Positions 10,278 through 59,711 of a DNA stretch of 64,000 nucleotides are shown one piece after another. The notes under the pieces were generated by a model. That model searched no databases. It saw only the letters and a list, made by a program, of their open reading frames with translations, and was not told the DNA's origin. The DNA lies in the IMG/VR virus record IMGVR_UViG_3300033144_003384, positions 1 to 64,000 of that record. One strand, given 5' to 3'. Numbering within the stretch: the stretch's first letter is position 1; every line of letters starts with the position of its first letter. This DNA comes from a virus. The position numbers were made by a program, and so were the translations under genes.

Positions 10278-10306
10278 ATTGTAACACGTAAGAGCCTGAA
10301 AGTCAA
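10278..10306 (-). promoter_or_regulatory. Promoter of the 10254 operon
   Basis: TTGACT (10306-10301), 17-bp spacer, TACAAT (10283-10278) on the - strand. It overlaps the stop codon of the gene at 10303. Confidence 0.85.
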
Positions 10307-10497
10307 GCCCTATTTAGATGGTCTTGGACTGCTTCCAGATATCCCGTTGCCGCTGCGTCTGCGTTGTCCAACACCAAGGTGAGCCCAATTGAGGCCAAGG
10401 CGTCGAGGACGTCGGGGCCACTGATCTGCTCCATCTCCAAAATCTCGAAGTTGAAGTAGCTGGCAAATGCTTCTGCGTATTCCTTTGTCCCTAACAT
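10303..10497 (-). CDS. Small hypothetical protein
   Basis: 64 residues from ATG 10497 behind AAAGGAGAA. Mostly helical (KEYAEAFASYFNFEILEMEQ, then VLDALASIGLTLVLDN). It follows the VWA gene by 43 bp and probably ends the MoxR-VWA operon, so it could be an accessory part of that system. Confidence 0.6.
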   Translation of the reverse strand: MLGTKEYAEAFASYFNFEILEMEQISGPDVLDALASIGLTLVLDNADAAATGYLEAVQDHLNRA

Positions 10498-10540
10498 GTG
10501 TTCTCCTTTCAAGAAAACAAAGTGGGGGGAACCCCGGCTT

Positions 10541-12088
10541 TCACCGGAGTTCCTTTCCCACTCGGTGGCGATAGGCAGTGCGCCACGCTCTCGGGAAATG
10601 CCGCCTATTACGTCGGCCCTTCCCCAAGTCTTTCAAAACCGTTATCGCCTCATCTGCGTTGGATGCCAACAGTACGTTCTCCCGAAGGACCACCTTGATG
10701 CATTCCATCTGCGCCGATTCGTTCACGTAATAGCCACCCTGCTTATCGTGGGTTAGGCCGTCCGTTATCCAAATGACAGGAACCTTGGACGCTTCTTTAA
10801 GGTCGACAGCATATTGGATTGCTAGACGATCGTTGGCATTCGTCATGCCCCTAAACGACGGCAGGTCGGTGACCATGCGGTTGCCCTTGCCAAGGACGAA
10901 CATGTTGTCATCATTGATCTTGTGTCCATTTTCGCCGTGAGCTATCACGGTTGCGCCCGGTGACGCTTCCAAGATTGCCTTGACCTGATCTGCGGTGATG
11001 TGCATGGAACCCGACACGTCGATGAGGACAACGCCACCTGCGTGCTTGATGTTTCGATCAAACACTCGACGGTGCGGGTCGACCAGTAGTCGCTTGATGC
11101 GTCGGGGATTCTTGCCACGGTTCGTTGCTACACGCCTGCGTGCGATCGCACCAGGAACGTGCCTGTTCAGATCGGTGTCTGCGAATCGTAGCTCTTCCCA
11201 TTTGGATGGAGTCTCGTTCGGTCCGTCACCGTAACGTCCTTTGCGACCTTTACTTTCCCGATCCATTTTGATCTTGGCGATCTGTTCGACGTTCATTTTC
11301 GGTGCAGGCTTGTTGTCCTCTGCAACAGTATCGCCATTGCCCACGACAACGTGAACTACGACGACAGGCTCGGGTTCCCATGGCTGATCGGTGTCATCTT
11401 CTGGCGGTGCGGGAGGATTCGCGATACGGTCAAGGAACTCGGCAATATCTTCTGTGTACGTGTACCCAATCGTTCCGATAGGGTTCTTCTTGGGCCACGG
11501 CTTCGTGGACCGGAAGTCGCCGTTGGAGTTCTTGTCCATTTTGGCAACAGACTTTTGGAGCCTCTTTGCCAATGCCCGCAGGGAGTCGGCCCACTCGGGG
11601 TTTATCCTGCGAACACCGACGATGAACTTGTTGAGGCTTCCGGTGTATAGGCAGGCACCTACGTAGTAGACGCATTCTGCCCAATTTTCGGCCGTTGCAA
11701 GCTGTTCACCTACGGAAGTATCGTTTAGGTCAACGACGTTTTTCATGTTGAATCCTGCTTTGGATGCCAAGTAGTTCACTCGGATTTCCTCAGCCGACTG
11801 CATGCCTTCGTCTGTCGCACGTCCACGTAGCACCCATGGCTCGCGGTCTCCCGTCGATACCTTGGCGTGCATCATTTCGTGTGCCCGTATCGCTCGGGAG
11901 GTATCGTCGTCGCCTAATGGCACGTTCATTTCTCGACGGACAATGGCTGTGAACGGGGAACCCCGTTCTGCCGCGCATGCCGTCACGTCCCATTCGCCGT
12001 TTCCTTCACGGTAGAACTCGTGGTCCTTGTGAAGCTCGACGTCGTCTCGCCTGAGTAGTTCGGGTAGCGGTCTCATTTGTGCAACCAT
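10541..12088 (-). CDS. VWA-domain protein with N-terminal HExxH metallopeptidase-like motif
   Basis: 515 residues from ATG 12088, which shares a base with the MoxR stop. Residues 70-74 are HEMMH, a HExxH zinc motif, with Glu100/Glu101 placed as possible third ligand. A Pro/Glu-rich linker (about 225-265) leads to a C-terminal VWA domain with the MIDAS motif DVSGS (Asp357, Ser359, Ser361) and a later TDG (about 440). This order recalls the DUF2201 type, a putative metallopeptidase plus VWA-like domain normally encoded with a MoxR ATPase, and also CobT-like VWA partners. The pair probably remodels or cuts a protein target in an ATP-dependent way. The target is unknown. Confidence 0.8.
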   Translation of the reverse strand: MVAQMRPLPELLRRDDVELHKDHEFYREGNGEWDVTACAAERGSPFTAIVRREMNVPLGDDDTSRAIRAHEMMHAKVSTGDREPWVLRGRATDEGMQSAEEIRVNYLASKAGFNMKNVVDLNDTSVGEQLATAENWAECVYYVGACLYTGSLNKFIVGVRRINPEWADSLRALAKRLQKSVAKMDKNSNGDFRSTKPWPKKNPIGTIGYTYTEDIAEFLDRIANPPAPPEDDTDQPWEPEPVVVVHVVVGNGDTVAEDNKPAPKMNVEQIAKIKMDRESKGRKGRYGDGPNETPSKWEELRFADTDLNRHVPGAIARRRVATNRGKNPRRIKRLLVDPHRRVFDRNIKHAGGVVLIDVSGSMHITADQVKAILEASPGATVIAHGENGHKINDDNMFVLGKGNRMVTDLPSFRGMTNANDRLAIQYAVDLKEASKVPVIWITDGLTHDKQGGYYVNESAQMECIKVVLRENVLLASNADEAITVLKDLGKGRRNRRHFPRAWRTAYRHRVGKELR

Positions 12089-12801
12089 CAGTTGACCTGG
12101 TCGACCGTGATTGCGTCCACGAAACCTTGGGCTTCCTTGCCAAGAAGTAGGCGCGATGCCTCTTCAAGGCCGATCTTGTCCATGAGCTTCGCAATATCGT
12201 AGAACTTGCGCAACGAAATGCGCTTGCTGCCTGCGTCTGCCATTTTGTCTGCGTAGTCACGGAACTCGCGGGGGAGTCGCCGTAGCGCGTCCGGATGTGG
12301 ACGGTCGACGCGAACGGTTGCGGGGAATCGGTCGATCAATGCTTCTGGCAAGTCGGCCGGATTTTCGACGTTTGTTGTCATGATCACGGTGAACCCGTCA
12401 CGTGGACGGTGGATGCGACTTGTCTTGGGGTGCTCCCATTGTGCTGACTCTGCTGAGTCGGTCATGGCTAGAAGTAGCGCAAGTACGTCTCCGGATGCGC
12501 GATCAATTTCGTCAATGACGAGACGTCCGCCTGCTAAGCCGTCGCCTTCCCATGCACGTATTGCTGCACCTTCGTGATATGCCCATTCCGCACCTGCTGG
12601 CATGAAGCCACCGATGATATCGAAGTCGGTCATATCTTCTGTGCAGATGAGGCGATGGGCACCGCGGTTGGTGTCGCCCATGTTGAGACCCGCGTGGGTC
12701 TTTCCTGTTCCTGGGGGGCCGTGTAGGATCATTCGATCAATGCCCGCGTTGAGCATTATGTCGACATCTTTCCAACATTGTGGCGCTGTTTCTGAAAGCA
12801 T
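12088..12801 (-). CDS. MoxR/CobS-like AAA+ ATPase
   Basis: 237 residues from ATG 12801 behind AAAGGA; an upstream GTG-type extension into the promoter is rejected. Walker A GPPGTGKT at 28-35, Walker B LVIDEID with Asp97-Glu98, sensor TTN near 143-144, and arginine finger ALIDRF at 155-159. MoxR ATPases form hexameric rings and work with a VWA-domain partner, as magnesium and cobalt chelatases do; here the partner is the next gene. It is short for the family (usually 300 residues or more) and lacks most of the lid. Confidence 0.88.
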   Translation of the reverse strand: MLSETAPQCWKDVDIMLNAGIDRMILHGPPGTGKTHAGLNMGDTNRGAHRLICTEDMTDFDIIGGFMPAGAEWAYHEGAAIRAWEGDGLAGGRLVIDEIDRASGDVLALLLAMTDSAESAQWEHPKTSRIHRPRDGFTVIMTTNVENPADLPEALIDRFPATVRVDRPHPDALRRLPREFRDYADKMADAGSKRISLRKFYDIAKLMDKIGLEEASRLLLGKEAQGFVDAITVDQVN

Positions 12802-17592: not shown

Positions 17593-17948
17593 CAGTATCC
17601 GATCCTTTCTCCGAGGTCGAAAACACGTTGCATTAACGCACCCCAACCGCAGTAGTAGTGGGCGGCGGTGAACCGCTTGGTTTTGGGGTAGTAGGTGATG
17701 GTGGCGTACGCTTCGTCGGTACGCATATCGCCCTCACCAGGATTCAGCTCATAGGGCTGGTCGAGGTTGATCCCGCACGAACCGCACGGAATATCGCCCG
17801 CCACGCTCAATGGCATGTGAATCATCAGGGACTTGCGGAACCGCTTGGTTCCCTCCCTGATGGCGTCGAAGCTGTCAGCCTCGTGGTATGCCTTGGCTCC
17901 ATGTTCCCATGGTCGCCGGAAGGCTGGTTTGGAAGTGGTAGTAGTCAC
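17592..17948 (-). CDS. Hypothetical protein with CGSCG
   Basis: 118 residues from ATG 17948 behind GAAAGGAGC. PCGSCG near residue 55 and a later Cys suggest a metal or redox site; the rest is mixed (AYATITYYPKTKRFTAAHYY). Not recognised. Confidence 0.65.
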   Translation of the reverse strand: MTTTTSKPAFRRPWEHGAKAYHEADSFDAIREGTKRFRKSLMIHMPLSVAGDIPCGSCGINLDQPYELNPGEGDMRTDEAYATITYYPKTKRFTAAHYYCGWGALMQRVFDLGERIGY

Positions 17949-18036: not shown

Positions 18037-18065
18037 CGAACATACGTTCGACGAACACCCGTTCG
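18037..18065 (+). promoter_or_regulatory. Two tandem LexA (SOS) boxes
   Basis: CGAACATACGTTCG (18037-18050) fits the Gram-positive/actinobacterial SOS consensus CGAAC-RNRY-GTTCG perfectly; CGAACACCCGTTCG (18052-18065) differs at one inner base. They lie 33 bp upstream of the zinc-ribbon gene, so that gene should be induced by DNA damage through host LexA. Confidence 0.8.
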
Positions 18066-18097
18066 ATTACCGTCAGCCAATCACCCGAGGAGAGAAC

Positions 18098-24832: not shown

Positions 24833-24861
24833 TTGCACTCGAACACCTGTTCGGTTAGAGT
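24833..24861 (+). promoter_or_regulatory. SNF2 promoter with embedded LexA box
   Basis: TTGCAC (24833-24838), 17-bp spacer, TAGAGT (24856-24861). The spacer contains CGAACACCTGTTCG (24840-24853), an SOS-type GAAC-N4-GTTC site, placed to block polymerase. ATG follows 6 nt after the -10. Confidence 0.75.
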
Positions 24862-50251: not shown

Positions 50252-51415
50252 CTATACGGTATCGTCGAGGAGGTCCATGTTGTTGGCATCCATGACCTCC
50301 TGGTGAGCGACACGCATTGTGTTCGCCCTTGTCTTGGGGCCGACCGGGGTAGGGGATGACACGAAAAACTCATTCAGCAACAGTGTTCGAATCAAATGAT
50401 CCAGTGGGTACGAATACGGGTCTGTGACGTGTTTCTTGCGGTACTTCGACACGAATACCTTCGCCCCTTTCTGTAGGCCAGGGGTCAACATATTCTCTTC
50501 AATGCACATCTTCACGCCATCCCATCCGAATGATCCGTACGTTTCGATGAGGGCCTGGACGTCAAACTCCCCCCACAGTCTGCGCTGTGCGTCGATCTGG
50601 GGGAACGCCGTAACGAGCCTGTCGTAGAACTCCGGTTCCGTAACAACAACGTCGTTGAGCCTGCGCGCAGCGATTGAGTGCAACGGAATTCCGACCCTTG
50701 GATTTGCTGTCGTCATATCGGCGTAGTCGTAGAAGGCACAGTAGTCGGCACCGTGTTCGTCAATGATGAATTTCATGACGTCATCCGACGTCCAGTCGTA
50801 GATGATTTTGGCAAACCTGAGCGGTACGGCTTTCGACATCCGATATGGGCGATTGATGTAGTTCTCGTGGAGCTTCTGTGTCACGGACCTGTATCGGATC
50901 ATCGACTCGTTGGCGCGTACCCCCGTGATGAAGGCGGTCATGCCCTCTTTGCCCTGCATCGTGTAGTAGTCCACGGATTTCGGAACAGGCTTGTTGCGAT
51001 CAAGCCCAAAGTCGGATGCCATGATGGCCCCCTCTGGGATTGGCCGGACAAGGCGGCCTTCGGCTTCTCTCTGCGCTGACCACAGCAGAACGTACTCTCG
51101 CCTGCCAAGCACCCAAACTTCTTGCCCCATTGGGAGGCAATACCATTCGAGGTCGATCCAGCTATAATCACGTACACGTTCAATGAAGTCGATTACGGAA
51201 GGCGAAACCATTTCTTCGTCTCGGAAGATGACCTTGACTGGCCCCAGCCCGCGTTCTTCGTGTATCTCTTTGGCAAGATAGATAACAGCAGTGGAGTCTT
51301 TGCCGCCAGAGAATTGGACAGCAACGGTGTCGAATGTGTCGTAGACGTGCCGGATGCGTTCCCGAGCAGCCTTTAGGACGTTTGTGTGGTCCAGGAATAG
51401 CCGTTTCCGAGCCAT
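50252..51415 (-). CDS. PAPS reductase-like PP-loop protein (IbrA/DndC-like)
   Basis: 387 residues from ATG 51415. SGGKDST at 36-42 is the PP-loop of the ATP pyrophosphatase family. The layout (VKVIFRDEEMVSPSVIDFIE, YDWTSDDVMKFIIDEHGADY, C-terminal DUF3440-like part) resembles phosphoadenosine-phosphosulfate reductase relatives such as phage and prophage IbrA and the DndC of DNA phosphorothioation. No CxxC iron-sulfur pair of classic reductases is evident. IbrA is normally paired with a ParB-like IbrB; two ParB-like proteins lie in this operon. Nucleic-acid sulfur chemistry or another adenylation is possible. Confidence 0.8.
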   Translation of the reverse strand: MARKRLFLDHTNVLKAARERIRHVYDTFDTVAVQFSGGKDSTAVIYLAKEIHEERGLGPVKVIFRDEEMVSPSVIDFIERVRDYSWIDLEWYCLPMGQEVWVLGRREYVLLWSAQREAEGRLVRPIPEGAIMASDFGLDRNKPVPKSVDYYTMQGKEGMTAFITGVRANESMIRYRSVTQKLHENYINRPYRMSKAVPLRFAKIIYDWTSDDVMKFIIDEHGADYCAFYDYADMTTANPRVGIPLHSIAARRLNDVVVTEPEFYDRLVTAFPQIDAQRRLWGEFDVQALIETYGSFGWDGVKMCIEENMLTPGLQKGAKVFVSKYRKKHVTDPYSYPLDHLIRTLLLNEFFVSSPTPVGPKTRANTMRVAHQEVMDANNMDLLDDTV

Positions 51416-53923: not shown

Positions 53924-54309
53924 GTTTCGCCTTTCAGCCACTCGGGAGTAGCTGGCTCGCCGCTTGTCCATGACAGACGAACGTGGTATGCCTCATCATA
54001 CATCCAGTCGTGTGCCCAACCGGGGAGGGCGAGCCCGAGGGATTCCGATAGTGCCGGGTTGTTGCCGATGTTCGTATGGCACTGTCGGCAGATTGACAAA
54101 AGGTTGCGCTCTTCGAGAATGGAGCCACCTTGCGACCGTCGCTTTAGTTCGTGGATATCGGATGATGGCCGCCGGTTGTACACCACGGCACCATCGTAGG
54201 CGGCAAACACGGGGCAGGCTTCACATGCCGGTCGCTCTCGTAGGAGTCGCTCAACGAGGGGTCGCCTTTGCCTGTAGATGGTTTCCTGCTTTTTGGATCG
54301 GTACCTCAT
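53920..54309 (-). CDS. HNH endonuclease
   Basis: 129 residues from ATG 54309 (ATGA overlap). CEAC, then DIHELKRRSQGGSILEERNL, LLSICRQCHTNI form the HNH motif with two CxxC pairs. Small phage HNH proteins often assist terminase or junction processing; here the neighbours are RuvC and a glycosyltransferase. Confidence 0.88.
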   Translation of the reverse strand: MRYRSKKQETIYRQRRPLVERLLRERPACEACPVFAAYDGAVVYNRRPSSDIHELKRRSQGGSILEERNLLSICRQCHTNIGNNPALSESLGLALPGWAHDWMYDEAYHVRLSWTSGEPATPEWLKGET

Positions 54310-55385
54310 GCGAGCGAAGCTATCAGTCCGTCCCATTTCGCTGCGCCCCATTTGGCGTCGAGCGGCTCTAGGGCGACACGTTGGCGGTCTGCCTCTTCTT
54401 GTCTGACTGCTGGATCACGAAGTTCTTTGAAGTGCTTAACCCACTGGGCGTTGTTTTTGGCTGTGCGGCCAATCTTGTATTCTTTCTTCAGTCGCTTGTA
54501 TTCGCCAGAGTCGGAGGCTACGAACGGGATTCCTGCAGCTGCGTACTCGATACCTTTGATCCAGCTTTTCGATTCATTGAATGGTGATTTGCGAATCGGG
54601 ACGACCCCGATGTCGAACCGCATGAGGTCGTCGAGTCGTTCGGGTGGTACGGGGAGGAGGATGGTGACGTCGTCTTTCCCGAGCCCGACGACGTCGTAAA
54701 AGTGTGGGTGATATCCGACGTGGCCTGAATGGTGGTATCTCCACCCTTCGGTGCCGATCGTTCGGTATAGGCTTTTCAATATGTCGAGGTCTCCGGATGT
54801 GCGGTGTGCTGTTGATCCGATCCATCCGACAGTTGGCCGGTCTTCTTCTTCGTGTACATGTGGCGTGAATTTGTCGAGTTCTACATGGTTCTCCATGATG
54901 TGAATTTTGTCGGATGCAACGAATTGACTTAGTCTTTTCGCTAAGTAGGGGGTGGATGTGATGACGGCGTCCGACACGGCGAGCGTCTTGCGATAGTGGT
55001 CGGTGTTTTCGTTTGGGTGGGCTCTTGGGTGTGAGGCGTAGTAGGCGAGATTGCCCGGTCCGAGGCCCCAATACCAGTCGTCGATGTCGTTAACGATTAC
55101 GACACCTTTCTTCCTAACTGTTTTGATCTGTTCGGGAATCGAGGCATGCATCCATCGCTGCATTACGATCATGTCAAGCCCGTAAGTGAGGTCTTCCGAA
55201 TCGAATTTACGGATGGCGAATTCTTGAACAGCCGGGTCCCAGGCGAGTTCGCCGAGCACGTAGTTGTGGTTCGTGTATCGGAGGTACTGACCGAGACGGA
55301 TATGTCCGGCTCCGCCAAGGATTTGCGATCCGTCTAGGCGAACTGCTTCTGTTACGAAGTCGCCGGTCGCAATCCCGACTTTCAT
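54306..55385 (-). CDS. Glycosyltransferase, GT4-like
   Basis: 359 residues from ATG 55385. VVIVNDIDDWYWGLGPGNLA, SDAVITSTPYLAKRLSQF, TVGWIGSTAHRTSGDLDIL, VVPIRKSPFNESKSWIKGIE, YAAAGIPFVASDS give a GT-B fold with a C-terminal nucleotide-sugar site (E-x7-E-like). Coupled by ATGA at both ends inside the recombination operon, which is odd. It may glycosylate DNA, phage protein or cell wall. Confidence 0.82.
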   Translation of the reverse strand: MKVGIATGDFVTEAVRLDGSQILGGAGHIRLGQYLRYTNHNYVLGELAWDPAVQEFAIRKFDSEDLTYGLDMIVMQRWMHASIPEQIKTVRKKGVVIVNDIDDWYWGLGPGNLAYYASHPRAHPNENTDHYRKTLAVSDAVITSTPYLAKRLSQFVASDKIHIMENHVELDKFTPHVHEEEDRPTVGWIGSTAHRTSGDLDILKSLYRTIGTEGWRYHHSGHVGYHPHFYDVVGLGKDDVTILLPVPPERLDDLMRFDIGVVPIRKSPFNESKSWIKGIEYAAAGIPFVASDSGEYKRLKKEYKIGRTAKNNAQWVKHFKELRDPAVRQEEADRQRVALEPLDAKWGAAKWDGLIASLA

Positions 55386-55885
55386 TCCAAGTCGGCTTCT
55401 GTGATTTCGTCGAACACCCACGTACCACCAAGTGATGCCCATAGCGCTTCATCTATGACGTTGTAGTCAACGTCGTATTGCTCAATGAGTGCCTTGTGCT
55501 TTTCGATGGACTTTTGAAGGAACGCAGTCATGGACATGTCCTGTTCGGATGTTTCTCCGAGGGCAATGAGGCGGTCTGCTTCGGTGAGGCGTTGCTCTAC
55601 GTAAAAGCGAAACCGTTCAATTTTCTTCTTGCGTTCACTGAAGTTGTGACGCGCTTCGAAGAGAAGAGTTTTCCCGGCTTCGCCCATAGCGTTGTATCGC
55701 TCTCCGGCGACTTTCTCTTCCTTCTCGATTTCATACACTTGCGAGTCGAGGCTGTTGAGAAGCCGCTTGGCTTCTTTCCTCCAGCGTCCTCGCACGTCGG
55801 GAGAACGGAGGTAATCTTTCTGTTCGTCAGTAGCTCTGTTCTTTACGTCTTCAGCTACGAGACGAGCAAATGCGTCGTCGTTTAG
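55382..55885 (-). CDS. Helical protein of the recombination operon
   Basis: 167 residues from GTG 55885 behind AAGGAAC; GTG 55945 would overlap the nuclease gene. Long charged helices (RWRKEAKRLLNSLDSQVYEI, NFSERKKKIERFRFYVEQRL) resemble a coiled-coil partner found next to phage Cas4-like nucleases. Not assigned. Confidence 0.68.
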   Translation of the reverse strand, partial: LNDDAFARLVAEDVKNRATDEQKDYLRSPDVRGRWRKEAKRLLNSLDSQVYEIEKEEKVAGERYNAMGEAGKTLLFEARHNFSERKKKIERFRFYVEQRLTEADRLIALGETSEQDMSMTAFLQKSIEKHKALIEQYDVDYNVIDEALWASLGGTWVFDEITEADLE

Positions 55886-58646: not shown

Positions 58647-59711
58647 CTATCCGTCCAGCCATTCTAAGTTGTTCATCGTCCACTCGACTATTTGTTTCAA
58701 AGATTCGTGGATGTCCATAGGCGGAGCCCAGCCTGCGTTCCTCAAACGAGAACCATCGAGGCTATATCGAAGGTCATGTCCAGGACGCGACGAGTGGAAG
58801 TCAACCATCTCATACTTGAGAGGCTTCCCAATGTAGCCAGCGATTTCCTGAGCGATTTCAAGATTGCTCAGCTCCTCGTCACCAGCGATGTTCCACCAGT
58901 TGGGATGGTCGGAGTAGTCGCCGTCCATATACATGGAAGGCTCATCGTTTTGGAGAATCCACATCAGAGCATCAGCGTGATTCCGAGCATGTAGCCAAAC
59001 CCGAGAGCCAATCTCCCAATGCGTGATGTCTGTGTACCCCTCATCTTCCAGGCTCTTCATCTCTGCTGGATGGGGCTTACCGTGAACCTCAACCGTTTCT
59101 CCGTTGAGGACCTTCTTCATGACCATGGGCACATATTTCTCCGTGTCCTGCCTCTCGCCCACGTTATTCATCGTCCGTGTCAAAATCACGGGAACATCGT
59201 AGGTTCTCCAGTATGCGAAGGCAATTTGTTCTTGCGCTGCCTTCGATGCGGAGTATGGGTTAGAAGGACGAAGGGGGTCGTCTTCTTTGTGCGACACTCC
59301 GGCTGGTGCTGGTCCAAATATCTCATCGGTCCCGATCTGAATGAACTTTTCGGGTTCGGCGAACCTTGCGTAATCGAGCATGGTCGTCGCCAAGTTGACG
59401 TTGTTGCGGATGAATGGCCCAGGGTTCACGATTGACCTATCGACGTGAGAGTCTGCGGCCATGTTCACGATGTAGTCAAAGTCGCCCATGCGGCTTAAGG
59501 TCAGGGGAGTGAATTGCACGTTCAGGTCGTGCCAATGAACAGTCACCCTATCGGGGTCGTATTCTTCGATGTCTGTGAGGCGTTCGATTCTTCCGGCGTG
59601 CCGCAAGGAATCTATTACCACGATTTCCCAGTCAGTGTTTTTGAGCCAATGCTCAACCGCGTGACTCGCTATGAACCCGAGCCCGCCCGTAAGCAGTACG
59701 CGTGTACTCAA
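58647..59711 (-). CDS. rmlB: dTDP-glucose 4,6-dehydratase
   Basis: 354 residues from TTG 59711, overlapping the upstream TGA (TTGA). NAD motif GGLGFIASH at 9-17, catalytic TDE at 128-130 and YSASK at 153-157 are all present. It makes dTDP-4-keto-6-deoxyglucose, the entry to dTDP-rhamnose and other deoxysugars. No rmlA, rmlC or rmlD follow, so the product may feed the glycosyltransferases here or be finished by host enzymes. The HWEIGSRVWLHARNHADALM part fits the sugar-binding side. Confidence 0.92.
   Translation of the reverse strand: MSTRVLLTGGLGFIASHAVEHWLKNTDWEIVVIDSLRHAGRIERLTDIEEYDPDRVTVHWHDLNVQFTPLTLSRMGDFDYIVNMAADSHVDRSIVNPGPFIRNNVNLATTMLDYARFAEPEKFIQIGTDEIFGPAPAGVSHKEDDPLRPSNPYSASKAAQEQIAFAYWRTYDVPVILTRTMNNVGERQDTEKYVPMVMKKVLNGETVEVHGKPHPAEMKSLEDEGYTDITHWEIGSRVWLHARNHADALMWILQNDEPSMYMDGDYSDHPNWWNIAGDEELSNLEIAQEIAGYIGKPLKYEMVDFHSSRPGHDLRYSLDGSRLRNAGWAPPMDIHESLKQIVEWTMNNLEWLDG

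What the first reader, a model, noticed from the sequence alone, without database searches (positions are those of the whole stretch)
10541..12801. MoxR ATPase with a VWA protein that also carries HExxH
The VWA partner has HEMMH with a nearby Glu at 70-101 besides the MIDAS DxSxS, so it may be a metal-dependent peptidase turned on by the ATPase ring. MoxR-VWA pairs act in metal-cofactor insertion and stress; in a phage accessory region the pair might remodel a host complex. The next small gene (10303) may be a cofactor.
Basis: partly seen in the sequence, partly recalled or inferred. Interest (0 to 1): 0.6.

Follow-up and report, generated by a model that had tools for sequence, protein, structure and literature searches.

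The report
Phage AAA ATPase with VWA-metallopeptidase partner
A virus of bacteria carries a two-gene machine, an ATP-driven ring protein and a partner that joins a probable zinc-dependent protein-cutting domain to a VWA docking domain; related phage genes are usually labelled vitamin-B12 genes, and this evidence argues that the label is wrong.

Summary
On the minus strand, 12088-12801 encodes a 237-aa MoxR-type AAA+ ATPase. It overlaps by one base a 515-aa protein (10541-12088) with HEMMH (70-74), E100/E101 and a VWA domain with MIDAS DVSGS (357-361). The pair is fixed in a large viral family. In a search seeded with the ATPase only, 77 of 78 loci have the partner downstream, all with HExxH; the one exception is cut by its contig end. 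AlphaFold models residues 1-230 confidently (pLDDT 92.8) with a zincin layout. Its best PDB matches are minigluzincin peptidases, but with non-significant E-values. Profile comparisons link it stepwise to the cyanophage "peptidase" beside cobS, to phage "CobT", and to genuine CobT. Six genuine CobTs lack HExxH and have lost the acidic residue equivalent to E101 but keep E100. This points to E101 as third metal ligand and argues against the B12-chelatase reading of phage CobST. Acidimicrobiaceae carry the pair chromosomally in the lexA/nrdR/dinB (SOS) locus. The idea was published for jumbo phages (Iyer 2021), so this is a new, divergent member of a known kind. Proteolysis, substrate and role remain unshown. 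The "cofactor" gene at 10303 is not conserved.

The parts
12088..12801 (-). MoxR-type AAA+ ATPase, 237 aa (P0002)
   Evidence: Pfam AAA_5 8.4e-13; phrog_16448 7e-32 and phrog_249 (CobS-like) 3e-16; profile matches midasin, then NorQ and CbbQ in the PDB; 37-member alignment with invariant ATPase residues
12697..12720 (-). Walker A GPPGTGKT, residues 28-35 of the ATPase
   Evidence: sequence; G28, G31, G33 and K34 invariant in 37 members
12502..12525 (-). Walker B RLVIDEID, residues 93-100 of the ATPase
   Evidence: sequence; R93, D97, E98 and D100 invariant
10541..12088 (-). Metallopeptidase-VWA protein, 515 aa (P0001)
   Evidence: translation; phrog_33218 1e-37 for residues 272-491; no Pfam hit; AlphaFold2 pLDDT 84.6, pTM 0.79
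11414..11998 (-). Predicted gluzincin-like domain, about residues 31-225
   Evidence: AlphaFold2 of residues 1-230: pLDDT 92.8, pTM 0.90; best PDB matches are minigluzincins, E 1.1 and above
11867..11881 (-). HEMMH, residues 70-74, predicted zinc-binding and catalytic motif
   Evidence: H70, E71 and H74 invariant in 57 aligned members and HExxH in 77/77 loci of the ATPase-seeded search
11774..11791 (-). EEIRVN, residues 100-105; E101 predicted third metal ligand
   Evidence: E100, E101, R103 and N105 invariant; aligns with EDxRIE of cyanophage peptidases; E101 position lost in six genuine CobTs
10604..11056 (-). VWA domain, about residues 345-495
   Evidence: Foldseek matches to integrin I and VWA domains, best E 0.015 with probability 0.98
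11006..11020 (-). MIDAS DVSGS, residues 357-361
   Evidence: sequence; D357, S359 and S361 invariant

Best explanation
The two genes encode one ATP-driven machine. The MoxR-type ATPase forms a ring (inferred from its family). The VWA domain of the partner docks on it through its MIDAS (inferred from RavA-ViaA and NorQ-NorD type pairs). The partner's N-terminal domain is a gluzincin-like metallopeptidase that binds zinc with H70, H74 and E101 and uses E71 as general base (conservation and fold layout shown; zinc and catalysis inferred). ATP hydrolysis would unfold or expose a substrate, which the peptidase cuts. It is encoded in an early/accessory region, most likely to process or remove specific proteins during phage DNA metabolism rather than to insert cobalt into B12 (context evidence, inferred).
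For: HExxH and EExRVN are fixed across the family, HExxH also in an unbiased search. The N-terminal model is confident with a zincin layout, and 11 of the top 17 of 350,542 PDB chains are minigluzincins (selecase, abylysin, jannalysin). Homology runs stepwise: window family to cyanophage peptidase, E 1.1e-5, with HExxH on HExxH and EExRVN on EDxRIE; cyanophage to phage CobT, 4.3e-9; phage CobT to genuine CobT, 5.8e-5; cyanophage to DUF2201_N putative metallopeptidases, 1.1e-4 (all for one comparison). Six genuine CobTs lack HExxH and have T, Q, A or R at the E101 position while keeping E100, so the zinc residues were lost together where the protein serves a chelatase. The pair is almost never seen apart: 75/76 and 77/78 loci, the exceptions cut by a contig end. 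Related phage pairs lie beside replication or repair genes: gp46/47 and gp45/44/62, DNA polymerase III alpha, primase. Chromosomal copies lie in the lexA/nrdR/dinB locus.
Against: No enzyme assay or zinc evidence. Foldseek E-values for the peptidase domain are not significant (1.1 and above). Direct profile matches of the window family to phage CobT, genuine CobT and DUF2201_N are not significant. Two related phage CobTs (Pseudomonas phage nickie, Acinetobacter phage-plasmid) have lost both histidines, so peptidase activity is not required in every branch.
Confidence: 0.6

Rival explanations
1. Virion-assembly chaperone with proteolytic maturation: the pair folds and trims structural proteins, as Iyer et al. 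2021 proposed for group 2.2 jumbo phages and as a MoxR-VWA pair acts in tail growth of Acidianus two-tailed virus.
For: Same architecture described and this role proposed (PMC7824862).
Against: In six annotated phages or phage-plasmids the pair lies by replication genes, not head or tail genes. The window pair sits among small accessory genes with no structural gene recognised nearby. Chromosomal copies without phage structural genes beside them exist.
Confidence: 0.18
2. Cobaltochelatase or cofactor insertion: a viral CobST pair that teams with host CobN to raise B12 production.
For: Relatives are annotated CobS/CobT, and this role is argued in PMC8651126 and noted as uncertain in PMC11288001. 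The ATPase resembles CobS-like phrog_249.
Against: No CobN or ribonucleotide reductase large chain in the 83.8 kb record. No CobT (PF06213) match in the window record or in 8 genomes (mostly Acidimicrobiaceae) with the pair. Genuine CobTs have lost the zinc-site residues that this family keeps.
Confidence: 0.08
3. Non-proteolytic remodelling factor: the HExxH domain binds a metal or a partner only, and the machine works as a pure chaperone.
For: MoxR-VWA pairs without peptidase motifs act as chaperones (established knowledge, e.g. RavA-ViaA). Two relatives lost the histidines but keep the pair.
Against: The catalytic Glu71 and all putative ligands are invariant in the window family, which a purely structural role would not require.
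Confidence: 0.13
4. Chance HExxH in an unrelated domain.
For: The pattern is short.
Against: Invariance over a family about 30-42% identical to the window protein, the downstream acidic motif, the fold layout and cross-family alignment.
Confidence: 0.01

Closest known systems
MoxR AAA+ with vWA fused to an N-terminal metallopeptidase, group 2.2 jumbo phages (Iyer et al. 2021, PMC7824862)
   Same: Same two-gene architecture and domain order as described there.
   Different: The window family lies in an 83.8 kb record. P0001 finds no tblastn match among 50,697 phage records. Direct comparison with ASV44729/ASV44728 was not made.
Cyanophage cobS plus 'peptidase' pair (phrog_249 / phrog_459, e.g. 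PHM1_136 / PHM1_135)
   Same: HEV[GS]H and EDxR[IV]E in 79 of 80 family members (the other unread), VWA with MIDAS, adjacent ATPase; N-terminal profiles match at E 1.1e-5.
   Different: Gene order reversed (peptidase before cobS); larger proteins (741 and 354 aa against 515 and 237); ATPase only 27.5% identical.
Phage and phage-plasmid CobS/CobT (SSU5 type; phrog_1576; PF06213 + PF11775)
   Same: HEV[GA]H in most, VWA, adjacent CobS-like ATPase.
   Different: The one scanned matches the CobT Pfam models, the window protein does not; some members lost HExxH.
Aerobic cobaltochelatase CobT
   Same: VWA at the C-terminus, ATPase partner, E-x-x-R-x-E remnant in the N-terminal part.
   Different: No HExxH and no E101 equivalent in six sequences; direct N-terminal match to the window family not significant (E 0.12).
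DUF2201_N putative metallopeptidase-VWA proteins (PF13203)
   Same: HExxH domain followed by a VWA-like DTSGS motif.
   Different: Motif NxAxDxxIN, no direct profile match (E 0.16); linked only through the cyanophage family (E 1.1e-4).

Membership tests
MoxR-type AAA+ ATPase with VWA partner | Walker A, Walker B, sensor 1 and arginine residues of an active AAA+ core | tested here: met
   sequence and 37-member alignment; Pfam AAA_5 above cut-off, AAA_3 26.6 bits against a 27-bit cut-off
MoxR-type AAA+ ATPase with VWA partner | adjacent VWA gene with MIDAS | tested here: met
   75/76 and 77/78 loci, exceptions cut by contig ends; MIDAS residues invariant
MoxR-type AAA+ ATPase with VWA partner | hexameric ring that binds the VWA protein | not testable with these tools
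   needs biochemistry
Gluzincin-like metallopeptidase | HExxH | tested here: met
   77/77 in the unbiased set
Gluzincin-like metallopeptidase | third acidic ligand on a downstream helix | tested here: met
   E101 invariant, in helix 93-110; sequence position only, distances not measured
Gluzincin-like metallopeptidase | zincin fold matching a solved member | tested here: inconclusive
   top Foldseek hits are minigluzincins but E 1.1 and above
Gluzincin-like metallopeptidase | bound zinc and proteolysis | not testable with these tools
   needs assay
Cobaltochelatase CobST | CobT Pfam domains PF06213 / PF11775 | tested here: not met
   no Pfam hit for P0001 and no CobT model among the families matched by 37 relatives; PF06213 not found in the record
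Cobaltochelatase CobST | CobN partner available in the same genome | tested here: inconclusive
   PF02514 absent from the record, but the record may be incomplete and the host could supply it
DUF2201_N-VWA proteins | profile match to the DUF2201_N domain | tested here: not met
   hhalign E 0.16; no Pfam hit
Iyer 2021 phage MoxR / metallopeptidase-vWA pair | MoxR AAA+ next to vWA fused to an N-terminal metallopeptidase | tested here: met
   architecture only
Iyer 2021 phage MoxR / metallopeptidase-vWA pair | sequence homology to the named examples ASV44729 / ASV44728 | not tested
   their sequences were not fetched

The most novel reading that the evidence does not exclude
An AAA+-driven metalloprotease shared by actinobacteria and their phages and tied to the DNA-damage response, which strips or cuts proteins on DNA: a prokaryotic working analogue of Cdc48/p97 with Wss1/SPRTN, of which the cobaltochelatase subunit CobT is a catalytically dead offshoot. 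Basis: the peptidase motif, chromosomal copies in the lexA/nrdR/dinB locus flanked by SOS boxes, replication-module location in other phages, and LexA-type boxes in the window.
Probability: 0.12. Interest if true: 0.8.

Novelty: new member of a known kind. Interest (0 to 1): 0.5.

Why it matters
CobS/CobT-like genes are very common in phages (404 phage records match this ATPase), and their function is stated to be uncertain (PMC11288001). One published view makes them B12 auxiliary genes and calls the peptidase label a mistake (PMC8651126); another makes them chaperone-peptidases (PMC7824862). The residue comparison here favours the peptidase side: the viral families mostly keep a full HExxH-plus-acid site that six genuine CobTs have lost. 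That makes the question testable with single point mutants.

Tried and rejected
The small gene 10303-10512 as third component: not in any cluster shared by the related loci. Sequence search of solved structures for the VWA protein: only chance or low-complexity matches. Pfam and NCBIfam scans of 37 relatives: no credible family. Direct hhalign of the window family with DUF2201_N, phage CobT and genuine CobT: not significant. B12 context: no CobN and no ribonucleotide reductase large chain in the record. PF06213 search in 397 Actinomycetota genomes gave two weak hits without HExxH that look NorD-like on reading, not CobT. I first set E100 and E101 level as third ligand; the loss pattern in genuine CobT (E100 kept, E101 replaced) favours E101. 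From memory I first aligned HDTALH of genuine CobT with HExxH; hhalign places HExxH elsewhere, so that idea was dropped. Conserved upstream genes in part of the family (clusters 134 and 110) have no informative match.

Full report
Observation. The window is part of a virus record of 83,756 bases. On the minus strand, ATG 12801 opens a 237-aa ATPase ending at 12088; the next gene starts at 12088 with a one-base TGATG overlap and runs 515 aa to 10541. The ATPase has GPPGTGKT, RLVIDEID, TTN and IDRF.

More than chance. The first viral search used AHEMMHAK as a probe, so the invariance of HEMMH there is partly built in. I therefore searched with the ATPase alone. Of 78 newly fetched loci, 77 have the VWA partner directly downstream and all 77 have HExxH, with varying x residues; the exception is cut by its contig end. 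In a 57-member alignment H70, E71, H74, E100, E101, R103, N105 and the MIDAS residues are invariant. The partner is adjacent in 75 of 76 loci of the first set, the other cut at its edge. The two sets overlap in contigs; about 77 loci are non-redundant at 90% identity of the VWA protein.

Fold. The whole protein models at pLDDT 84.6; residues 1-230 alone at 92.8, pTM 0.90. HExxH lies in helix 62-77 after three short strands, and E100/E101 in helix 93-110, the layout of zincins. Foldseek against the PDB gives no significant E-value, but 11 of the first 17 chains out of 350,542 are the minigluzincins selecase, abylysin and jannalysin. The C-terminal half matches integrin I and VWA domains. Among viral models the matches are phage VWA and CobT-like proteins. 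Coordinates could not be read, so metal geometry is inferred.

Relatives. The ATPase matches 404 phage records, nearly all cyanophage cobS, below 60% identity (27-29% in the rows listed). The gene beside cobS in P-HM1, annotated 'peptidase', has HEVGH, EDIRIE and a MIDAS. Of 80 members of that family 79 keep HEV[GS]H with EDxR[IV]E, in a search whose probes did not include the motif. Phage-plasmid CobT of the SSU5 type has HEV[GA]H, and the one scanned matches Pfam CobT and CobT_C. Profile comparison links window family to cyanophage peptidase (1.1e-5), cyanophage to phage CobT (4.3e-9), phage CobT to genuine CobT (5.8e-5) and cyanophage to DUF2201_N (1.1e-4). Direct comparison of the window family with phage CobT, genuine CobT and DUF2201_N is not significant, so membership there rests on intermediates. 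These E-values are for single comparisons.

Why E101, and why not a chelatase. Six CobTs, five of them annotated as cobaltochelatase subunits and the sixth identified by similarity, lack HExxH; they keep the E100 equivalent but have T, Q, A or R at E101. ICP2 CobT has HECYH with VD at these two positions, again keeping the second acid. E101-x-x-x-N105 also resembles the gluzincin ExxxD pattern (established knowledge). So residues of the metal site appear to have been lost together where the protein serves cobalt insertion and kept in most viral branches. Loss also happened in Pseudomonas phage nickie and an Acinetobacter phage-plasmid, which have DSEISK and DQEVAK. The window record has no CobN or ribonucleotide reductase large chain.

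Setting. In six annotated phages or phage-plasmids the pair lies among replication or repair genes. About 24 Actinomycetota metagenome-assembled genomes, mostly Acidimicrobiaceae, carry the pair on what look like chromosomal contigs. There it is followed by a LysM protein, NrdR, a PIG-L-like protein, DinB and an L,D-transpeptidase-like gene, with lexA divergent upstream where seen, adjacent in some and a few kb away in others (names read from sequence, not from a profile search). Exact SOS-type boxes CGAACNNNNGTTCG occur 58 times in these loci against 0.3 in shuffles. They form one clade (100/100) beside a small group of four viral sequences and two further actinobacterial contigs; the window protein is a long branch inside the main viral clade. 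The pair is restricted: 4 of 148 genomes sampled from the order. The window itself has three exact boxes, 0.17 expected.

Mechanism. Shown: conserved ATPase core, conserved HExxH plus acid, MIDAS, constant pairing, zincin-like layout. Inferred: ring assembly, MIDAS docking, zinc, proteolysis, ATP-fed substrate, role in DNA metabolism. Iyer et al. 2021 (PMC7824862) described this architecture in jumbo phages and proposed virion assembly with peptide processing; Liu et al. 2021 (PMC8651126) held that CobT is mislabelled as peptidase. The comparison with Cdc48/p97 and Wss1 rests on the minigluzincin relation of Wss1 (PMC5557861) and is analogy only. The data here favour the peptidase; they do not decide the role.

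Verdict. A new, divergent member of a known kind, unlabelled in Pfam and NCBIfam, with a fresh argument on the phage CobT question and an unexpected SOS-locus association.

Noticed in passing
window 18037-18065 and 24840-24853: Three exact actinobacterial SOS/LexA-type boxes CGAACNNNNGTTCG: twin boxes in the gap between the leftward ORF run that holds the pair (first ORF starts at 17948) and a rightward gene near 18096, and one about 15 bases before a helicase gene (24868). Expected 0.17; none of 100 shuffles has three. Suggests host LexA control of early promoters.
   Followed up: partly
L001-L155: 73 exact SOS-type boxes in 1.61 Mb of related viral loci (partly redundant) against 0.6 in shuffles; many lie 0.8-1.0 kb downstream of the VWA stop.
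   Followed up: partly
L160-L186: Chromosomal copies of the pair in Acidimicrobiaceae between lexA and a LysM-nrdR-dinB run, with SOS boxes at the lexA side and twin boxes after the VWA gene.
   Followed up: partly
L323 2974-5058 and L327 2989-4911: CobT-like proteins of phage nickie and an Acinetobacter phage-plasmid have lost both histidines of HExxH while keeping the pair: natural active-site losses.
   Followed up: partly
window 50252-51415, 54306-55442, 58647-59711: Phage genes resembling phosphoadenosine phosphosulfate reductase, a glycosyltransferase and a nucleotide-sugar epimerase, possibly sulfur or DNA/surface modification.
   Followed up: no
PMC11288001 and record OV696614.1 (hit H200): Phage CobT (chelatase-like VWA protein) is described or annotated with the function of the unrelated dimethylbenzimidazole phosphoribosyltransferase, also called CobT.
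   Followed up: no
L171: Record titled Candidatus Saccharibacteria carries a copy that groups inside the Acidimicrobiaceae clade with the same gene order; probably a mislabelled or contaminated bin.
   Followed up: no
window 10541-12088: The window protein is a long branch (1.34 against a median of 0.32) and differs at many otherwise near-invariant VWA positions (for example TNAND for GNGVD) while keeping N417 and D420.
   Followed up: no
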